NCBI RefSeq assembly: GCF_900167535.1
Contig: NZ_FUYE01000008.1
Location: 186,001-250,000, forward strand
DNA: 64,000 nucleotides
Direction of reading: 5' to 3'
Origin: Prosthecobacter debontii
GTDB taxonomy: Bacteria; Verrucomicrobiota; Verrucomicrobiia; Verrucomicrobiales; Verrucomicrobiaceae
Part shown: piece after piece, positions 18,393 through 55,865 of the stretch
How the letters are laid out: each line of letters begins with the position of its first letter
Position numbering within the stretch: the first letter of the stretch is position 1
The notes under the pieces: generated by a model
What the model was told of the DNA's origin: nothing
The model's input: only the letters and a program-made list of their open reading frames with translations
The model's database searches: none
Position numbers and translations under genes: made by a program

Positions 18393-18524
18393 TGGGGGTG
18401 GGCGGAGATCGGTATTCGGTGATCAGATCACAAAGTCATGCCGATTGCTAGCGACTGAAAGCTGCAAAGTCGTCGGTGAAACACGGTCGCTTCCAGACAG
18501 ATTATTTGGGACAGCATAGTTTAA

Positions 18525-21500
18525 CTAATCAAATTCGTATCGATGTCGGATAACAGATTGTTCGGCATCTTCTCGGTAGTTTTGAGCGAGAGATCGGAGA
18601 GTAGCTCCAAGCCTACAGAATCCTCTGTCCTCCGCTTGAGAAGCAATTCTCTCCCATTTCTCAGCAAGTTCGACCTCCTCTTTGCCTCCACTAAAGCCAT
18701 GAACACCCCGTGAATTGAAGATACGAATTCTCAAACCCATGCGAAACTCAGGATCGTCTTTAGAATCGAGCAACTCACAAACAGCTTCCCTCCAAAGTCC
18801 ATTTTCATCTTTGGGTGTATAGTATATGACTTCCCCGATTTGATGAGAGGCCACTTCCCAATGTCCAGAAGCAGTGCAAATCTCTTTCACCGATGCTATC
18901 CAGGATCTGAGTTTTGCATCGTCAAAATCACCGTCCAGGCACAAGCCAGGTGGATGATTCCAGTCATTTAACAATCGGTATGCATTCCGCACCATGGAAC
19001 CTTTAGTTTCATTAGCTTCTGACAAATTCTCATCCTGTTTCTCCTGATCTGAATCAGAGTCTATAACCTTGTGTCGCGAGCGATAAATCATTCGAATGAC
19101 TTCACAAAAGAACTCTGGGCGCTCTGACAATTGGCGATACAGTGTCCGGGGGCGTGCCCCATTGAAGCGATCCAATAGAGCAAGGAACTTCACCTCCATA
19201 TAGGCGAGACGCGCCTCATCGATCTCGTTGATCTTCTGCAAGTGGTGGAACACCTCGCAAATTTCGTGAACATCAATGTGGTTAATAGAAGGGTCAAAGG
19301 TCTCAAGTGACTTTAAAGCCAGTTCTGGATACGGCCCTACCCACATTTCTTCGAGCCACAAGCATTGAATCGCAGCATCCGCACGCCCATTTGCAAGCAG
19401 TTGTTCAATCGCATAATCAAGACCTTCGTGTTCATCTTTACTGGGCTGGATACGCACGCGCTTCCAATACTCTGCTTGATTATACCCCAACTCTAATTCG
19501 GCTTGCTGCCACACTTTTTTAATCGCCGGAAGAACCACAAAAAACTCAACCTTCGCTCTGACAGTCCAGCCAGAACGATCCATACTGTCAATCCAATCCC
19601 ATGATTTGGTTTGGAATCGTCGCCAGGTATAGGAAACTGCAAAACGAACATCAGTGTCCGTTTCCGACTCTAGCAAGGTGGGTAGAAAAGCGGCGTCATG
19701 AGCCAACTCCTCATCAGCACCACAAGCATTGCCTACTTCATGAGGCGACTCCACAGAACGCCAGAAGCTTTGCAATGCATGGATGCCACCTTTCTTCTGA
19801 ATCTCCTTCAGAGCATCAATCCGCTTGGTCAGTAGAAGTTGACGCTGTTCCTGCCAGTTTCCTTTTTCTTCGTAGAGTTCAGAATCACGGCCCGAAAACA
19901 ATCGACGGTGCCTGACTTCAAGCTGCTGAGGTTTTAACTTTTCAGCTACCGCCTCAAGCTGAAGCAGCAGATCTTCTGGCACCATCCATGCATCGCTGTC
20001 CGCATATTTACGATGGTTTGAGATTTTACTCGCAATCTCGATCCACAAAGACAACCTTTGCTCTTCCGGCAAGCTTAAAACTCCCTCAGAAAGAAGCCGT
20101 TTTCGATAATTCTCCGCGAAATTACTAAACCGCGGATGGATGTAAAAAAAGAACTCCAAAAGTTCCGTCAGCTTTACGGGATCGTTACCCGCAATTTCCA
20201 AGGCTAGATCCGCATAGAAACCCTCATCCGCCAATCGTTGACCATTGGTTACTCCATCTTCCCAATTTTCTGGGACGAAGTTCTGCCATTTTGGGCGATG
20301 AGTAGGATGACCAGTTGAATGATTCTCAGGAAGAAGCTGTAACAATAGCCTCCACCCCACATCGGAATGATCACGGATAATAGACCTTACTGCAGCATGA
20401 CGGCGATCAGGATTAGCAGCTGTTTGAGGAAACCACGGGAGAAGAATGCCTCTCAATGAATTTGAAGGCCGATTCGACCAGTTCCCACCTGGATCGACAG
20501 AGGCGAGATTGGAAAGAATCCCACATACGCGGATAAGATAGCTTTCACTCCAAGCTAGTGACTCGAGTGCCCACAAAAGGCCCGTGATAAAAGTGCCACC
20601 ACTAAACCAATCCCCTTCCTCAGAAAAGACACCTGAAAAAGGTTCATCAGGCTTCTCGCTTGCGCCACCAACGGCTCGGAGAAATTCGTCTGGCGATGCT
20701 TCCGCGAGCAATGGAAGCACATCATTCAAACTCGCCCATCGATGCGAATCGGCATCGGCAAGTAATTCGCGAACAACCTGTGTTGCCACATTTTGAGGAA
20801 GTCTGCCTCGACATGACGTCAACGATTCACCATGGGAACCAAGGAGAGCTAAGGTTTCCGCAATACCTTCTCTCACCCGATGCGAATAGATGCGGCTACG
20901 TCCGTAAAAGCTTGCTGCGAAGCGCTCTTCTTTGGGGAGCCCCAACCGTGGGTCAAGCTCCGAAAGCACTTTGATGGCGACCACCTTAAAACGCTCAAGT
21001 ATGTCGGGACCGATTAGATTTCCGAGATAGATCCATGGCTCATAACGGGAGGTAAACTTCCAGCGCCCAATCGCAAACTCAAGGGGAGCGGCCTTGGCGC
21101 TGGCGGCTTGGCGAATCTGATCGATCCACTCCCCATAACCGTTTCCCGAAAGTTCCTCAATCGCTTCCCTGTCCCCTTTGTTTTCATCCTCCCATTCGCC
21201 TATCAACTGAGCAATGGCGAGATCAGCCGCCTCTGACTGAGTTGCCCAATCAGGATGAACAGACAAACCTTGAACCAGTCGTAACAAAATATTAAGATCT
21301 CGTCCCGCTCTATTGGTGAGCATACGAGCCCTTTCATCTTGATATCCGGCTTTGACTAAAGCCTCCTTCATTTCATGAACTCTAGGTTGAATAAGCTCAC
21401 AAGCATTGCCGTGCGGAAGACCACCGGGGAGCGAAGAGTAAATGACGGCATGACGCTGCTTGGCCCTTTGGATGAGTTGTGCGCCAATCTCGCTACTGAG

Positions 21501-22364
21501 ATCAAAGTCCGCAACTAAGACATGCCTCTCGCTCAGTGAGCATGCATGTTTGAATGCTTGCTCAGACTCAAAGATAAGCACACGGTTCTGAACTTCTAAC
21601 CGCTCATCATCGGGTAATGCTGCGACAAACGCGCTGATGTAGTCTTTAGGGTGGCGCGGAAAACGGGTGTCGAAGCGGAGTTCCGTATCATTTCGATCGA
21701 GAATCAAGCGTCTGAGCTTTGCTTCAGCATTAGCTCGGCCTACAGTGAAGAGTTCGGTACACAAATCAGGTGGAGTTCCAAACCCTCGCAGAAGTTTCCA
21801 ATGAGACTCTGCTGTATCAAAATCAGATAGATAAAGGCCTATCGAAGTTCCCAGCCAATGTCCAATAGCAGGAAATTGGAACACCCAATCAATCAACTGT
21901 GCACCATCAATAACACGAATATCCATCCATTCGTTGCGCGATTTTTTTTCATTGATCCATGTCTCGATCCCGTCTTGCTTCCATGTGTCTTTCCAGTCCC
22001 GCAGACCTGATAAGGGGGTGACAAACACAAAGGTTGCCTCCTTCCTTACCTCTGGTGGCACTGCCAATGTTGAGTCGCCGTAGTCATCATTAGCCTTCTG
22101 TCGCGCATTGTTATTGGTCCCAATTTCCCAGTGACTCTTACCCTCTGGAACAAATGGATCATGGCCAAGCGCGGTTTCCAGTTCCCCGTCAGCCCCATGT
22201 TGACCGATACTATCTCCAAGTGGAAATCTGCGGTGAGTAGGCCTAGGACACGATGCGCAAACCAAACGCCAGACCAGCTCCACTATTAAGCCTTGCGCAA
22301 TTCTTGAATTAGCGCGCACCCAATGATCCAATTGATTTTCATTCACTATTTGCGATATCGCCAT
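18525..22364 (-). CDS. Giant protein with PD-(D/E)XK-like N-terminus; candidate defence protein
   Basis: A single 1279-aa ORF with no recognised full-length family. The first 170 residues look like a restriction-endonuclease-type PD-(D/E)XK fold: Asp59 in GADG, then WEIG with Glu80 in FVPEGKSHWEIGT, Lys90 in ARQKANDDY, and a W-rich block ending IDWVFQFPAIGHWL. Residues about 200-400 have the layout of a STAND-type NTPase region but no Walker A loop is visible. The rest is helix-rich, repeat-like and Trp-rich, with no membrane segment. It stands alone, downstream of a hairpin-repeat array and upstream of the sensor kinase. N-terminal nuclease plus long helical sensor is a common layout of anti-phage proteins, so a defence role is inferred, not shown. 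Confidence 0.7.
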   Translation of the reverse strand: MAISQIVNENQLDHWVRANSRIAQGLIVELVWRLVCASCPRPTHRRFPLGDSIGQHGADGELETALGHDPFVPEGKSHWEIGTNNNARQKANDDYGDSTLAVPPEVRKEATFVFVTPLSGLRDWKDTWKQDGIETWINEKKSRNEWMDIRVIDGAQLIDWVFQFPAIGHWLGTSIGLYLSDFDTAESHWKLLRGFGTPPDLCTELFTVGRANAEAKLRRLILDRNDTELRFDTRFPRHPKDYISAFVAALPDDERLEVQNRVLIFESEQAFKHACSLSERHVLVADFDLSSEIGAQLIQRAKQRHAVIYSSLPGGLPHGNACELIQPRVHEMKEALVKAGYQDERARMLTNRAGRDLNILLRLVQGLSVHPDWATQSEAADLAIAQLIGEWEDENKGDREAIEELSGNGYGEWIDQIRQAASAKAAPLEFAIGRWKFTSRYEPWIYLGNLIGPDILERFKVVAIKVLSELDPRLGLPKEERFAASFYGRSRIYSHRVREGIAETLALLGSHGESLTSCRGRLPQNVATQVVRELLADADSHRWASLNDVLPLLAEASPDEFLRAVGGASEKPDEPFSGVFSEEGDWFSGGTFITGLLWALESLAWSESYLIRVCGILSNLASVDPGGNWSNRPSNSLRGILLPWFPQTAANPDRRHAAVRSIIRDHSDVGWRLLLQLLPENHSTGHPTHRPKWQNFVPENWEDGVTNGQRLADEGFYADLALEIAGNDPVKLTELLEFFFYIHPRFSNFAENYRKRLLSEGVLSLPEEQRLSLWIEIASKISNHRKYADSDAWMVPEDLLLQLEAVAEKLKPQQLEVRHRRLFSGRDSELYEEKGNWQEQRQLLLTKRIDALKEIQKKGGIHALQSFWRSVESPHEVGNACGADEELAHDAAFLPTLLESETDTDVRFAVSYTWRRFQTKSWDWIDSMDRSGWTVRAKVEFFVVLPAIKKVWQQAELELGYNQAEYWKRVRIQPSKDEHEGLDYAIEQLLANGRADAAIQCLWLEEMWVGPYPELALKSLETFDPSINHIDVHEICEVFHHLQKINEIDEARLAYMEVKFLALLDRFNGARPRTLYRQLSERPEFFCEVIRMIYRSRHKVIDSDSDQEKQDENLSEANETKGSMVRNAYRLLNDWNHPPGLCLDGDFDDAKLRSWIASVKEICTASGHWEVASHQIGEVIYYTPKDENGLWREAVCELLDSKDDPEFRMGLRIRIFNSRGVHGFSGGKEEVELAEKWERIASQAEDRGFCRLGATLRSLAQNYREDAEQSVIRHRYEFD

Positions 22365-22570
22365 AGGATTTGAGCATGAGTATTTTGAATAAACTGATCC
22401 CGATCACCTCAGAGTGTCAGTCAAAAAGCATACTTGGCATCTTTTACTTATCCAAGCTGTCTAGAGGCAACAAGCAAGCGAAATGCATGAGCTGGCGTTC
22501 TGAGAGTTTTATAGGTAACACCACGCCGCCAAAGATTCTCCAGGTCCTATGCGTTCGGGCGAATCCTTGA

Positions 22571-22820
22571 AGAAACCTTCCAGCACCTCGAAGGTTTTTC
22601 TGAGAACCTGAAGACCTTTGGAAAAAACTAGGCGGTCTCTGGGAAAAGCGAAAGGATCTGGCGGAAACCTTCAGGTTTTGCAGAAAACCTAAAGGAATTT
22701 TGAAAAAGCATGATGGTTTTTCAGAAAACTCGAAGGAGTTCACACAAACCTAGAGGATCTGGCGAAAACTTATAGGATCGTCCCAAAACCTCCATGGCTT
22801 CTCAACAAGCCCTTTCGGAC
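22571..22820. repeat. Tandem ~20-bp degenerate hairpin repeats
   Basis: About twelve imperfect units follow a consensus close to AGGnTTTnncaGAAAACCT. The GG of successive units falls at 22593, 22634, 22654, 22674, 22694, 22715, 22735, 22755, 22775 and 22796, a period of 20-21 bp. Several units are themselves palindromic; the one at 22673-22690 forms a 7-bp stem AGGTTTT/AAAACCT. Units are contiguous, without spacers, so this is not a CRISPR array. Confidence 0.8.
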
Positions 22821-23240
22821 AAAACATTGATGATCAACGATTTCACTTGGAGCCATGGCTTTCTGCGTTCAGGCCCAACCCGAGGCCGCAATGCATCCAT
22901 TCTGGGACCGGCCTGAGCGGCACACATGGAGCGAGGGCGTCTCGCCTGCTGGGGCCTGCGTCCTCGCGGGGCACTGTTCTCGGAGACGACTGCGGGACCC
23001 TTTCAGCACCGGGGAAGGCTTGCATTCGACACATCAGAACGGATCGCGGCGGGACGCCTCGATCTGCACGCGGGACGGGTGCGCTCCCCGGGAACGCGGT
23101 CGCAGCGGCGGACCTACCAATGACAACCCGCAAAGCCCCACCACGAGGCTTTGGTCAATCGCGCTACGGCCCAGGCAGATCTCTGCCTATCGGCGGGGGT
23201 TTTGATAAGGGAGGTGGTTCGTCTTCGTAAGGGGTGGGGA
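22821..23240. other. GC-rich intergenic stretch, no supported gene
   Basis: Several overlapping ORFs of 65-127 codons exist here, but all are rich in Arg, Gly, Ser and Pro with no recognisable domain and conflict with each other, so I call none. A short hairpin CAAAGCC/GGCTTTG lies at 23131-23153, upstream of the next gene. Confidence 0.5.
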
Positions 23241-52394: not shown

Positions 52395-52439
52395 GTTCAG
52401 CTCATGCGCCTGACGGCTCGGATCAGGCACCAACTGAAC
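52395..52439 (-). other. attC-like inverted repeat A6
   Basis: An imperfect 45-bp inverted repeat: GTTCAG-TTGGTGCCTGA pairs with TCAGGCGCATGA-GCTGAAC. It overlaps the last codons of the GNAT-like gene, as attC sites often do. The cores do not match RYYYAAC/GTTRRRY well. Confidence 0.45.
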
Positions 52440-53208
52440 GCCGGTTGCTAACATGTTCTGCCTCGTTCTTGTGTTCTTGATACGCTTTCTGATACAGTCG
52501 CTCTAGTTCATGCCACCTCTTGTGCTGTAGCCTCTTCGGCCAAGGAAATAGCGGTAAAGAATAAACATGACCAAAATCTTTGTGAGGTCCTATGTATGTC
52601 ATAAATCCCTTGCATATTTCAATTCCTTCATCAGAAAATGCGTTTGCACAAATTTCTCGAAAAAATACTCCTTTTGAGGCTAATTGCTCAAGATTCTCGT
52701 AAAAAGCCTCAATAAGCTTCCGTCTATGTGGGCGATAGCCGGGAAGGACACCTAAATGTGAAAAATATGCGTTATATACTCCGGGAAAATCGAACGGAAC
52801 AACAGTATCAGTTTTAATTTGGCTATCAAACAACTCGCCAGCTTTTGCTAGGGCGTAATGATCGTCATTGAGAGCAACTATGCTCCAATACCCAACTATA
52901 TTTTTTGGCCCCGCTGTGAGCAGCGCCCAACCATCTGGATGAGCCATAAACACCGGAGCCCATTGCTCAACCGTTCCCTCGCGAAGTGGCGTAAGCTCTT
53001 CACCGATCAAATCTCTATCTTGCTCGATAAGGCGCTTCAACAGAGCTTTCCCATCCCAACGCCAGGTAAGAACATCTTCAATTCTAGATATGACTGGCCT
53101 AGATTTCACCTCGTTTCGTCGTTTGATGGATTCTACCCACAATTCGGTTAACTTGGTAATTGCTCCGCCAACAGTGGCGCCAATAATCAGAAGGATGATG
53201 TCATTCAT
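52423..53208 (-). CDS. Membrane-anchored GNAT-like protein, partner of HEPN gene
   Basis: A 261-aa protein. An N-terminal TM (DIILLIIGATVGGAITKLTE) is followed by a basic stretch and a cytosolic domain with the GNAT strand order: WALLTAGPKNIVGYWSIVAL, then YFSHLGVLPGYRPHRRKLIE, then FFREICANAFSDEGIEICKG. The acetyl-CoA loop, normally RGxGxG, is replaced by RPHRRK, so catalysis is doubtful. Its ATG overlaps the stop of the HEPN gene (ATGA), so the two are translated together. I infer a regulator, antitoxin or co-effector of the HEPN protein. Confidence 0.55.
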   Translation of the reverse strand: MNDIILLIIGATVGGAITKLTELWVESIKRRNEVKSRPVISRIEDVLTWRWDGKALLKRLIEQDRDLIGEELTPLREGTVEQWAPVFMAHPDGWALLTAGPKNIVGYWSIVALNDDHYALAKAGELFDSQIKTDTVVPFDFPGVYNAYFSHLGVLPGYRPHRRKLIEAFYENLEQLASKGVFFREICANAFSDEGIEICKGFMTYIGPHKDFGHVYSLPLFPWPKRLQHKRWHELERLYQKAYQEHKNEAEHVSNRRSVGA

Positions 53209-54203
53209 GGGGCGATGTGTTGAGGGTTGTTACCACCCTCCGAATCCGACTCGGAGTGGGAAGCGGGTTGTCCAGCGCCGTCTTGTTCGCCGATTGTTTT
53301 CTTCTGGGAGGGTCGATACACAACTTCCCCGCCTCCATAGAATCGAGGCTGCTCACTTTGACGCTTGCGCTCATACTCATCGTAGAGGTGTGAAGCCTTC
53401 TCAATATCTTGCTCGCTAAGAAACTTCTCAACGGCCTCGGCAACCTTGATTGCAGTCTCGACATCAGCACGGCTTGCTTCGGTTCTCCCGTGGGCAACGT
53501 GATTCCGCATCTGGCGCAAATCATCGACCTTCTCGGAAAGATCATTTGGAACCTCAATTCCATATCGCTCAACAGTCCGTAGAGAGACTGGGCGGCTAGA
53601 CATCATCATCATACGATCTCTACCTTGAGAGACTTCCGAGGAAAACTTCCGGATGACTGTATCAAGGTAGTTGTATGCCGCAAGGAAGGCACCCAATGGA
53701 TGGACCTTCGACACCTTCTTCAGTCCTTCCAGCTCCTTCTCCTCACGAGGCTTTCTGAGTCGGAACGCTTCTATATCGGCCGCATTGGTGAACTGTGGTA
53801 ACACCTCATCAAGATCCAAATCATACTGAGCTTGAAGCAGGCTCTTCATGAACTCGTAGGTCGATTCCATGTAGAAAATCGTGGTGAGTTCATTCGGCGA
53901 GCCATATCGATGCTGAAGAGCGTTCCGCTCATCAATCAAAAGTTCAACCTTGTTGAGATACGGAAGCGGAACGTTCTTGTCTTTAAGTTCCTTGATCGCG
54001 CCATGAATCGAAATTGTCTCCTTGGCTCCCTTAAAAATCGACACATCGAGATCAAGAAGTAGATCCTTGAAAATCAGTTCTACGCTATTCGCTAGGTGAA
54101 GGATCGCCAGCTTCCGATCCAGCTCGGCTCCGCCATTGAAATGTTCAATAGCGTGCGCAAAGAGTTCGAGGGAGCTCTGAAATAGGGGAGATTCTTTGGC
54201 CAT
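53205..54203 (-). CDS. Double-HEPN protein, candidate RNase toxin
   Basis: A 332-aa protein with two HEPN-like helical domains. The first (about 10-135) has the RxxxxH motif DERNALQHRYG (Arg93, His98). The second (about 170-265) has LRQMRNHVAHGRTE (Arg233, His238). HEPN domains with this motif are metal-independent RNases in toxin-antitoxin and anti-phage systems. The C-terminal 60 residues are polar and probably disordered. I start at ATG 54203, 9 bp after the attC core; no clear ribosome-binding site is visible. The downstream gene overlaps by ATGA. Toxicity is inferred. Confidence 0.75.
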   Translation of the reverse strand: MAKESPLFQSSLELFAHAIEHFNGGAELDRKLAILHLANSVELIFKDLLLDLDVSIFKGAKETISIHGAIKELKDKNVPLPYLNKVELLIDERNALQHRYGSPNELTTIFYMESTYEFMKSLLQAQYDLDLDEVLPQFTNAADIEAFRLRKPREEKELEGLKKVSKVHPLGAFLAAYNYLDTVIRKFSSEVSQGRDRMMMMSSRPVSLRTVERYGIEVPNDLSEKVDDLRQMRNHVAHGRTEASRADVETAIKVAEAVEKFLSEQDIEKASHLYDEYERKRQSEQPRFYGGGEVVYRPSQKKTIGEQDGAGQPASHSESDSEGGNNPQHIAP

Positions 54204-54211
54204 GTTTTTGT

Positions 54212-54271
54212 GGCGAACGATCAAGATGAGACACGAAGCTCTGCGGAGTTGCCTCCACCGCCTTGTTCGCC
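54212..54271 (-). other. attC site A7 (60 bp)
   Basis: The minus strand runs GGCGAAC (54218-54212 and 54271-54265 mirror each other as GGCGAAC/GTTCGCC). The next base pairs include GTGGAG against GATGAG with the usual mismatches. Classical short size. It separates the zinc-ribbon gene from the HEPN operon. Confidence 0.75.
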
Positions 54272-55094: not shown

Positions 55095-55865
55095 ATGAAT
55101 ACTCCCTCTTCCGAAAACATCGCTTTACTTATTGACGCCGACAATACCCCGGCGGCGAAAATTCAATTCATCATCAGTGAGTTAGCCTCCTATGGTGTCG
55201 TGAATATCCGCCGTGCCTATGGTAACTGGAAGAAACCGGAACTCGCGGGCTGGGAGAAAATGCTCCTCGAATATGCCATCTGCCCGGTTCAGCACTTTGA
55301 TCTGGTGAAGGGGAAAAATGGCTCTGACATGGCCTTGCTCATCGAGGCAATGGACATTCTCTACACCAAGAATGTGGGCACCTTTTGTTTAGTCTCGTCA
55401 GATTGTGATTTCACTCCGCTCGTCCTCCGGCTGCGTGCAGAGGGCAGGCAGGTCATTGGATTTGGGCAGCAAAAGGCTCCCGCCCCGTTTGTGAATAGCT
55501 GCACACGTTTCTTGTTCTTGGATGAAAGCCTGACCACGACCCAATCGGCCAAAGCCCCCACCGAGGGTCGGATTTTAAAGCAAGACTGCAAACTGATGAA
55601 CATGCTGCGTAGCGCCGTGGAGGCAAACGAAGGCGATGATGGTTGGGCGGTGTTGGGAGGAGTCGGCCAACACATCTCGAACCAAGATTCATTCGATTGC
55701 CGAAACTATGGTTTTAAAAAACTCAGCGATCTTTTCAATGCGGTGGATCTTTTCGAAGTCCGAAATATCCCAAGCACCGGGGGGAAGCCCACTTGCTCCG
55801 TCAGATGGGTCCGGAAGAATGGTAAAACGCACTCGCCCGCCACCTCTGCCCAGGCCATCCGCTGA
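55095..55865 (+). CDS. NYN (PIN-like) nuclease with C-terminal OST-HTH domain
   Basis: A 256-aa protein. Residues about 8-145 form a LabA-type NYN domain with the acidic site IALLIDADNTPAAK, DMALLIEAMDILY and FCLVSSDCDFTPLVLRLRAE, expected to bind Mg and cut RNA. Residues about 165-245 match an OST-HTH/LOTUS RNA-binding domain (GWAVLGGVGQHISNQ; YGFKKLSDLFNAVDLFEV). It lies between the two cassette arrays and upstream of kdsB, separated by 134 bp, so probably an independent gene. The RNA target is unknown. Confidence 0.85.
   Translation: MNTPSSENIALLIDADNTPAAKIQFIISELASYGVVNIRRAYGNWKKPELAGWEKMLLEYAICPVQHFDLVKGKNGSDMALLIEAMDILYTKNVGTFCLVSSDCDFTPLVLRLRAEGRQVIGFGQQKAPAPFVNSCTRFLFLDESLTTTQSAKAPTEGRILKQDCKLMNMLRSAVEANEGDDGWAVLGGVGQHISNQDSFDCRNYGFKKLSDLFNAVDLFEVRNIPSTGGKPTCSVRWVRKNGKTHSPATSAQAIR

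What the first reader, a model, noticed from the sequence alone, without database searches (positions are those of the whole stretch)
18525..22364. 1279-aa orphan protein with PD-(D/E)XK-like start and degenerate NTPase-like centre: possible single-gene defence system
The N-terminus has Asp59 (GADG), WEIG with Glu80 and Lys90 in the order expected of a restriction-type nuclease, and a Trp-rich linker ending IDWVFQFPAIGHWL. The middle has STAND-like spacing without a visible Walker A, and the C-terminal two-thirds looks like a helical repeat sensor. This is the layout of Avs-like and other single-protein anti-phage effectors, but the match to a named family is not evident.
Basis: partly seen in the sequence, partly recalled or inferred. 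Interest (0 to 1): 0.8.

Follow-up and report, generated by a model that had tools for sequence, protein, structure and literature searches.

The report
Nuclease-armed immune receptor without ATP switch
A large bacterial protein that looks like an anti-virus alarm (a DNA-cutting domain, a disabled switch domain and a long sensing coil) belongs to a very widespread but still unnamed family whose members swap the weapon at their front end while keeping the same sensor.

Summary
The 1279-aa gene is real, on the minus strand (18525-22364), and not an orphan. Residues 1-177 are a PD-(D/E)XK nuclease fold with D59, E80 and K90 near-invariant (49 of 50). Residues 190-370 are a STAND/AAA+ fold (best Foldseek hits Avs3 and Avs4) with no Walker A in any of 50 relatives. 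A winged helix (379-437) and a HEAT-like solenoid follow. The solenoid belongs to at least 570 loci in bacteria and archaea, with no significant Pfam, NCBIfam or PADLOC match. Its N-terminal module is repeatedly swapped: this nuclease plus pseudo-STAND, a Cap4/LmuA-type nuclease without any NTPase, a phosphorylase, a PD-T4-6-type kinase, or the GAPS6 partner GapS6a. The gene is low in GC and sits where one congener has no insert and another carries a type I restriction-modification system; relatives lie on plasmids, in prophages and beside known defence genes. Best reading: a horizontally moved, single-protein anti-phage receptor in which ligand binding by the solenoid, rather than an ATP switch, releases the nuclease. 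No phage test exists; trigger and target are inferred. New variant of a known kind.

The parts
18525..22364 (-). whole gene, 1279 aa, ATG at 22364, stop at 18525-18527
   Evidence: GC 0.485 and GC3 0.448, against GC3 0.64-0.80 in the eight housekeeping-type genes sampled across the window
21834..22364 (-). residues 1-177: PD-(D/E)XK nuclease domain (order alpha-beta-beta-beta-alpha-beta)
   Evidence: AF2 model pLDDT 90; R.BspD6I small subunit 2p14 Z 9.3 and EcoT38I 7edb Z 8.3; in Coraliomargarita L047 the equivalent of residues 1-185 is a separate ORF just upstream
22188..22190 (-). Asp59, putative metal ligand
   Evidence: D in 49 of 50 relatives, one gap; invariant in A4
22125..22127 (-). 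Glu80, putative metal ligand at the end of strand 75-81
   Evidence: E in 49 of 50, one Q
22095..22097 (-). Lys90, putative displaced catalytic lysine at the start of helix 87-101 (E+10, not the usual E+2)
   Evidence: K in 49 of 50, one T; secondary structure
21906..21908 (-). Asp153 of the IDG/IDW element in the last strand-helix of the nuclease domain
   Evidence: invariant 50/50
21255..21797 (-). residues 190-370: STAND/AAA+ fold without Walker A (pseudo-NTPase)
   Evidence: Foldseek Avs3 E 4e-6, Avs4 E 6e-5, then RFC, ORC, CED-4, Apaf-1; VIA Z 8-10 to AAA+ proteins over 179-369
21642..21683 (-). residues 228-241 (ELRFDTRFPRHPKD), the place of the lost P-loop
   Evidence: no GxxxxGK[S/T] in the aligned region of 50 of 50 relatives; typical sequences there are TRFPxQVADFV or AESPxDVADFV
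21045..21230 (-). residues 379-440: winged-helix domain, the start of the shared C-terminal module
   Evidence: helix/strand order; same element at 289-347 of the L060 model
18528..21044 (-). residues 441-1279: all-helical HEAT-like solenoid, proposed sensor
   Evidence: L060 model (40% identical) pLDDT 87; VIA matches to HEAT/ARM proteins; at least 570 related loci
20454..20495 (-). residues 624-637, signature DPGGNWSNRPSNSL
   Evidence: nearly invariant in 50 aligned members
18393..23228 (.). inserted segment (approximate bounds): gene plus about 0.8 kb upstream, absent from congener G025 and replaced by HsdR-HsdS-HsdM in congener G077

Best explanation
It is a horizontally acquired, single-protein anti-phage immune receptor of Avs-like layout. 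The C-terminal solenoid (residues 441-1279) binds a conserved sign of infection, most likely a phage protein or complex. The winged helix and the Walker-less STAND domain act as a rigid coupler or oligomerisation scaffold that holds the N-terminal PD-(D/E)XK nuclease off until the ligand is bound. The nuclease then cuts DNA, stopping phage replication, probably at the cost of the cell. Because the NTPase is degenerate here and absent in the Cap4-armed sister class, activation is thought to come from ligand binding and assembly, not from an ATP switch in this protein. Shown by computation: domain folds, conserved catalytic residues, loss of Walker A, effector swapping, mobility and defence neighbourhoods. 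Inferred: nuclease activity, DNA as substrate, autoinhibition, ligand class, abortive outcome.
For: Fold: Avs3/Avs4 are the top Foldseek hits of residues 1-480; nuclease-fold and AAA+ matches; solenoid model. Conservation: D59, E80 and K90 in 49 of 50 each; Walker A in 0 of 50. Effector swapping on one C-terminal module: Cap4/LmuA-type nuclease (VIA Z 12-13), PNP 'Effector' and PD-T4-6-type kinase, GapS6a; at least 12 changes on the tree; the query and L047 sit inside a starred clade of 6 whose other four carry the Cap4-type nuclease. Mobility: GC3 0.448; empty site in G025, type I RM at the same site in G077; 22 plasmid records, 16 of them conjugative or mobilisable; E. coli copies in P2-like and other prophages; patchy, 18 of 289 genomes of the order. 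Neighbours: AbiD, SieB, type I RM, SIR2, AbiE, RES/Xre, nSTAND1. Neighbour proteins hit 246 PADLOC models, against 42 for same-contig controls.
Against: No experiment on any member with this solenoid was found. The lysine is at E+10 rather than the canonical E+2, so the nuclease might be weak or a binding domain. Foldseek alignments to Avs are loose globally (TM about 0.2-0.3), as expected for multi-domain matches. The PADLOC tally counts models, not proteins. In the window itself the immediate neighbours are a histidine kinase/regulator pair and a PSCyt/PSD1 gene, not a defence island. The solenoid was modelled on a 40%-identical relative, not on the query itself.
Confidence: 0.7

Rival explanations
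1. A direct nucleic-acid sensor and restriction enzyme: the pseudo-STAND, winged helix and solenoid recognise invading or modified DNA (type IV-like), and the nuclease cuts that DNA without killing the cell.
For: Kaur et al. 2021 (PMC8195603) propose that inactive STAND domains act as nucleic-acid receptors; the best nuclease-fold matches are type II restriction enzymes; a type I RM occupies the same chromosomal site in a congener.
Against: The solenoid is net acidic in all 108 members examined (-1.2 to -5.7 charges per 100 aa; query -3.6), unlike a DNA-wrapping solenoid. The same solenoid is used with a kinase and a phosphorylase, which do not need DNA in hand. No methylase partner lies next to the window gene.
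Confidence: 0.18
2. A plasmid or mobile-element regulator or addiction element: the XRE-fused forms on plasmids work as autoregulated toxins that favour retention of the element.
For: Several plasmid class A copies carry an extra N-terminal XRE helix-turn-helix; one record is named HigA antitoxin by its HTH; RES/Xre and HicAB pairs nearby.
Against: Most members, the query included, lack the HTH; many are single-copy chromosomal genes; the effectors swapped in (Cap4-type nuclease, PNP effector, GapS6a) are defence effectors.
Confidence: 0.06
3. A housekeeping protein, for example a HEAT-repeat DNA-repair or scaffold factor with a relic nuclease fold.
For: The solenoid resembles FANCI/FANCD2, karyopherins and PP2A scaffold, and the window neighbours are ordinary genes.
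Against: Patchy presence (18 of 289 genomes), low GC, site swapped with type I RM or empty, plasmid and prophage carriage, effector turnover. Resemblance among HEAT solenoids is generic.
Confidence: 0.03

Closest known systems
Avs3 / Avs4 (AVAST, STAND immune receptors; PDB 8dgc, 8dgf)
   Same: N-terminal nuclease, central STAND fold, C-terminal repeat sensor; best fold matches of residues 1-480
   Different: No Walker A in any of 50 relatives, whereas Walker A is essential in the Avs relative Avs5 (PMC12931631); no PADLOC match; different nuclease subtype; different solenoid sequence; NTPase domain entirely missing in the sister class
iSTAND / iSTAND2 / BrxB inactive STAND proteins (Kaur 2020 PMC7159879, 2021 PMC8195603; BREX study PMC12839542)
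   Same: STAND fold with eroded NTP-binding motifs, N-terminal effector or adaptor modules, proposed sensor role
   Different: No MoxR or vWA partner beside the window gene; stand-alone nuclease fusion; keeps the winged helix and a very long conserved HEAT-like solenoid; spread over many phyla, not mainly multicellular lineages
Cap4 (CBASS) and LmuA (Lamassu) nucleases
   Same: The N-terminal nuclease of the sister class (for example L060) matches both (VIA Z 12-13)
   Different: The window protein carries another nuclease subtype; neither class shows a SAVED domain in its own chain
GAPS6 (GapS6a/GapS6b, Gamma-Mobile-Trio anti-phage system; Mahata et al. 2024, paper not held, recalled)
   Same: GapS6a (NF047935, E 5e-41) lies directly upstream of a member of this solenoid family in Buttiauxella and E. 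coli
   Different: True GapS6b (L160, L161) has no sequence similarity to this solenoid; the window gene has no GapS6a
R.BspD6I small subunit (2p14), EcoT38I (7edb)
   Same: Fold of residues 1-177
   Different: Sequence identity of 6-10% only; lysine position differs; fused to a receptor

Membership tests
Avs / STAND NTPase immune receptors | N-terminal effector domain | tested here: met
   PD-(D/E)XK fold with conserved D59/E80/K90; activity not tested
Avs / STAND NTPase immune receptors | central STAND/AAA+ fold | tested here: met
   Foldseek E 4e-6 to Avs3; VIA Z 8-10 to AAA+
Avs / STAND NTPase immune receptors | functional Walker A (GxxxxGK[S/T]) | tested here: not met
   absent in the query and in 50 of 50 relatives over the aligned region 190-380
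Avs / STAND NTPase immune receptors | C-terminal repeat sensor | tested here: met
   all-helical solenoid in the L060 model, pLDDT 87
Avs / STAND NTPase immune receptors | sequence match to curated Avs models | tested here: not met
   PADLOC: none at E<=1; Pfam only VMAP-M12 at E 0.048, below cut-off; NCBIfam none
PD-(D/E)XK nucleases | alpha-beta-beta-beta-alpha-beta core | tested here: met
   model secondary structure, restriction enzyme matches
PD-(D/E)XK nucleases | conserved acidic pair | tested here: met
   D59 and E80 conserved in 49 of 50
PD-(D/E)XK nucleases | lysine two residues after the second acid | tested here: not met
   WEIG has G at E+2; a conserved K90 lies at E+10; displaced lysine is inferred, so catalytic membership stays provisional
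PD-(D/E)XK nucleases | metal-dependent DNA cleavage | not testable with these tools
   needs purified protein
iSTAND of MoxR-vWA ternary systems | STAND fold with eroded NTP motifs | tested here: met
iSTAND of MoxR-vWA ternary systems | adjacent MoxR and vWA genes | tested here: not met
   immediate window neighbours are a histidine kinase/regulator pair and a PSCyt/PSD1 gene
GAPS6 | GapS6a gene with GapS6b | tested here: not met
   no match of the query to NF047935 or NF047936; GapS6b not homologous to this solenoid by blastp
Cap4-type nuclease receptors | Cap4/LmuA-type nuclease domain | tested here: inconclusive
   found in the sister class L060; not listed among the matches of the query's own N-terminus, which does not exclude it

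The most novel reading that the evidence does not exclude
A widespread class of NLR/Avs-descended immune receptors that gave up the ATP switch: in one branch the STAND domain survives without Walker A, in the sister branch it is gone and the nuclease sits directly on the winged helix, while one strongly conserved solenoid, shared by bacteria and archaea, senses one conserved phage feature and is re-armed with many different effectors.
Probability: 0.4. Interest if true: 0.85.

Novelty: new variant of a known kind. Interest (0 to 1): 0.75.

Why it matters
If right, a sensor module found in at least 570 genome loci, with no significant match in Pfam, NCBIfam or PADLOC at the versions searched, is a major unnamed branch of prokaryotic innate immunity. 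It would show that an Avs/NLR-like receptor can work without its NTPase switch, which asks directly what the ATP step does in STAND immunity. The strong conservation of the solenoid across phyla and effectors suggests a conserved trigger that could be found with escape mutants.

Tried and rejected
Single-sequence search of genome contigs found no relative; alignment-based patterns from the C-terminus solved that. Pfam, PADLOC, NCBIfam and PDB sequence searches with the query gave nothing significant. VMAP-M12 (E 0.048, far below the cut-off) was rejected as chance. Homology of GapS6b to the solenoid was tested on two GapS6b loci and rejected. Literature searches for GAPS6, for the solenoid family or for Walker-less single-protein STAND defence gave no paper on this family in the held library; the original GAPS6 paper is not held. 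N-terminal modules of L082/L100 and L052/L081 look HEPN/Abi-like by eye, but Pfam gave nothing for L082 and L081, so they are left unnamed. An 'off the shelf' Avs label was rejected for want of Walker A. Tandem Repeats Finder gave no array upstream of the gene.

Full report
WHAT IS THERE. Window 18525-22364 holds one 1279-aa open frame on the minus strand. The gene is single copy in its genome. Its GC is 0.485 and its GC3 0.448, while eight housekeeping-type genes sampled across the window have GC3 between 0.64 and 0.80, so it looks foreign. The query alone gives no significant hit in Pfam, PADLOC, NCBIfam or PDB sequences.

DOMAINS. AlphaFold2 on residues 1-480 with a 34-row alignment gave pLDDT 90. 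Residues 1-177 have the order helix-strand-strand-strand-helix-strand of PD-(D/E)XK nucleases, and VIA aligned them to the R.BspD6I small subunit (Z 9.3; aligned range 5-281) and EcoT38I (Z 8.3; 1-177). D59 lies just before strand 60-64, E80 in strand 75-81, K90 at the start of helix 87-101. In 50 relatives, D59 is D in 49 (one gap), E80 in 49 (one Q), K90 in 49 (one T), and D153 and W160 are invariant. The lysine is at E+10, not E+2, so a displaced lysine is inferred. Residues 190-370 are a STAND/AAA+ fold: the top Foldseek hits of the model are Avs3 (4e-6) and Avs4 (6e-5), followed by ORC, RFC, CED-4 and Apaf-1. No member has GxxxxGK[S/T] in this region (0 of 50). Residues 379-437 are a winged helix.

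THE C-TERMINAL MODULE. From about residue 380 on, the protein belongs to a very large family. A full-length model of the class B member L060 (1180 aa, 40% identical in the shared part, pLDDT 87) shows the winged helix followed by an all-helical solenoid to the end, with HEAT/ARM-like matches. The signature DPGGxWxNRPxNSL is nearly invariant.

EFFECTOR SWAPPING. The same C-terminal module carries different N-termini. Class A is the arrangement in the window. Class B carries a Cap4/LmuA-type nuclease (VIA Z 12-13 to Cap4 and LmuA) joined directly to the winged helix, with no NTPase. Single cases carry a PNP-type phosphorylase (L104) or have an upstream kinase close to PD-T4-6 (L084). In Buttiauxella and E. 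coli, GapS6a is the gene directly upstream. GapS6b itself is unrelated to this solenoid. On a FastTree of 108 members the module types need at least 12 changes (shuffled mean 41.6), so they are clustered by descent yet repeatedly exchanged. The query and L047 form a pair inside a fully supported clade of six whose other members are class B. In L047 the nuclease (equivalent of residues 1-185) and the rest (191-1279) are two adjacent ORFs, which marks the natural domain boundary.

CONTEXT. The strongest local evidence is positional. In congener G025 the matches to the flanking kinase and PSCyt/PSD1 genes are 226 bp apart with no gene between them. In congener G077 the same gap holds a complete type I restriction-modification system (HsdM, HsdS and HsdR by Pfam). 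In the window genome it holds this gene. Elsewhere, relatives sit on 22 plasmid records, next to AbiD and SieB, SIR2, AbiE, RES/Xre, type I RM and nSTAND1 genes, and in E. coli prophages, including a P2-like one. In the order only 18 of 289 genomes have a match. Neighbours of 15 loci hit 246 PADLOC models at E<=1e-10; controls from the same contigs hit 42. This counts models rather than proteins and is only supporting evidence.

MECHANISM. Shown by computation: folds, conserved catalytic residues, loss of Walker A, module swapping, mobility. Inferred: the solenoid recognises a phage-derived trigger; the winged helix and pseudo-STAND couple recognition to release or assembly of the nuclease; DNA is cut and infection stops. 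Because Walker A is missing in class A and the NTPase domain is absent in class B, a conventional ATP switch inside this protein is unlikely to be the trigger; nucleotide binding by some other route was not excluded. The main rival is direct nucleic-acid sensing, as proposed for inactive STAND domains by Kaur et al. 2021 (PMC8195603); the net acidic solenoid in all members speaks mildly against it.

RELATION TO THE KNOWN. It works like an Avs, but Walker A, shown to be essential in Avs5 (PMC12931631), is absent, so it is not filed as an Avs or canonical STAND NTPase. Walker-less STAND domains are known as iSTAND in MoxR-vWA and BREX systems, but the MoxR and vWA partners are not beside this gene. 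It is therefore a new variant of a known kind.

LIMITS. There is no experiment on any member. The solenoid was modelled on a relative. Only 80 of the 570 genome loci were read. The library lacks subscription papers, so a description published elsewhere cannot be excluded.

Noticed in passing
window 22566-22806: Degenerate repeat of about 20-21 bp (AAACCTnnAGG plus about 10 bp), roughly 12 units, 200-440 bp upstream of the gene and inside the inserted segment; autocorrelation 0.475 at lag 20, among the highest in the window, but Tandem Repeats Finder does not call it. Could be an operator array or a decayed minisatellite.
   Followed up: partly
window 52423-54224 (minus strand): Two overlapping low-GC ORFs (339 aa with weak HEPN_RiboL-PSP and PADLOC PDC-S19 matches, and 261 aa unknown), possibly another small defence cassette.
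   Followed up: partly
window 55095-55865: NYN nuclease domain plus OST-HTH/LOTUS domain protein.
   Followed up: no
L186 3137-9074 (G077:C13): Complete type I RM system at the very site that holds the window gene in G000, suggesting a small defence insertion hotspot between a histidine kinase gene and a PSCyt/PSD1 gene.
   Followed up: yes
L039 13326-16077 (G129:C27): Two adjacent tubulin-like genes (one confirmed by Pfam) about 4.6 kb from the class A relative in a congeneric genome, as in Prosthecobacter; suggests the window genus.
   Followed up: partly
L044, L045, L046: The class A N-terminus (first 140-260 residues) is followed by C-termini with no similarity to the query's solenoid found by BLAST in three small genomes of the same order, so the nuclease also shuffles onto other receptors or a very diverged solenoid.
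   Followed up: partly
L042 976-7203 and 11532-14318: A class A relative flanked by a 2075-aa protein without Pfam match, with an Mrr-like start by eye, and an nSTAND1-FGE protein.
   Followed up: no
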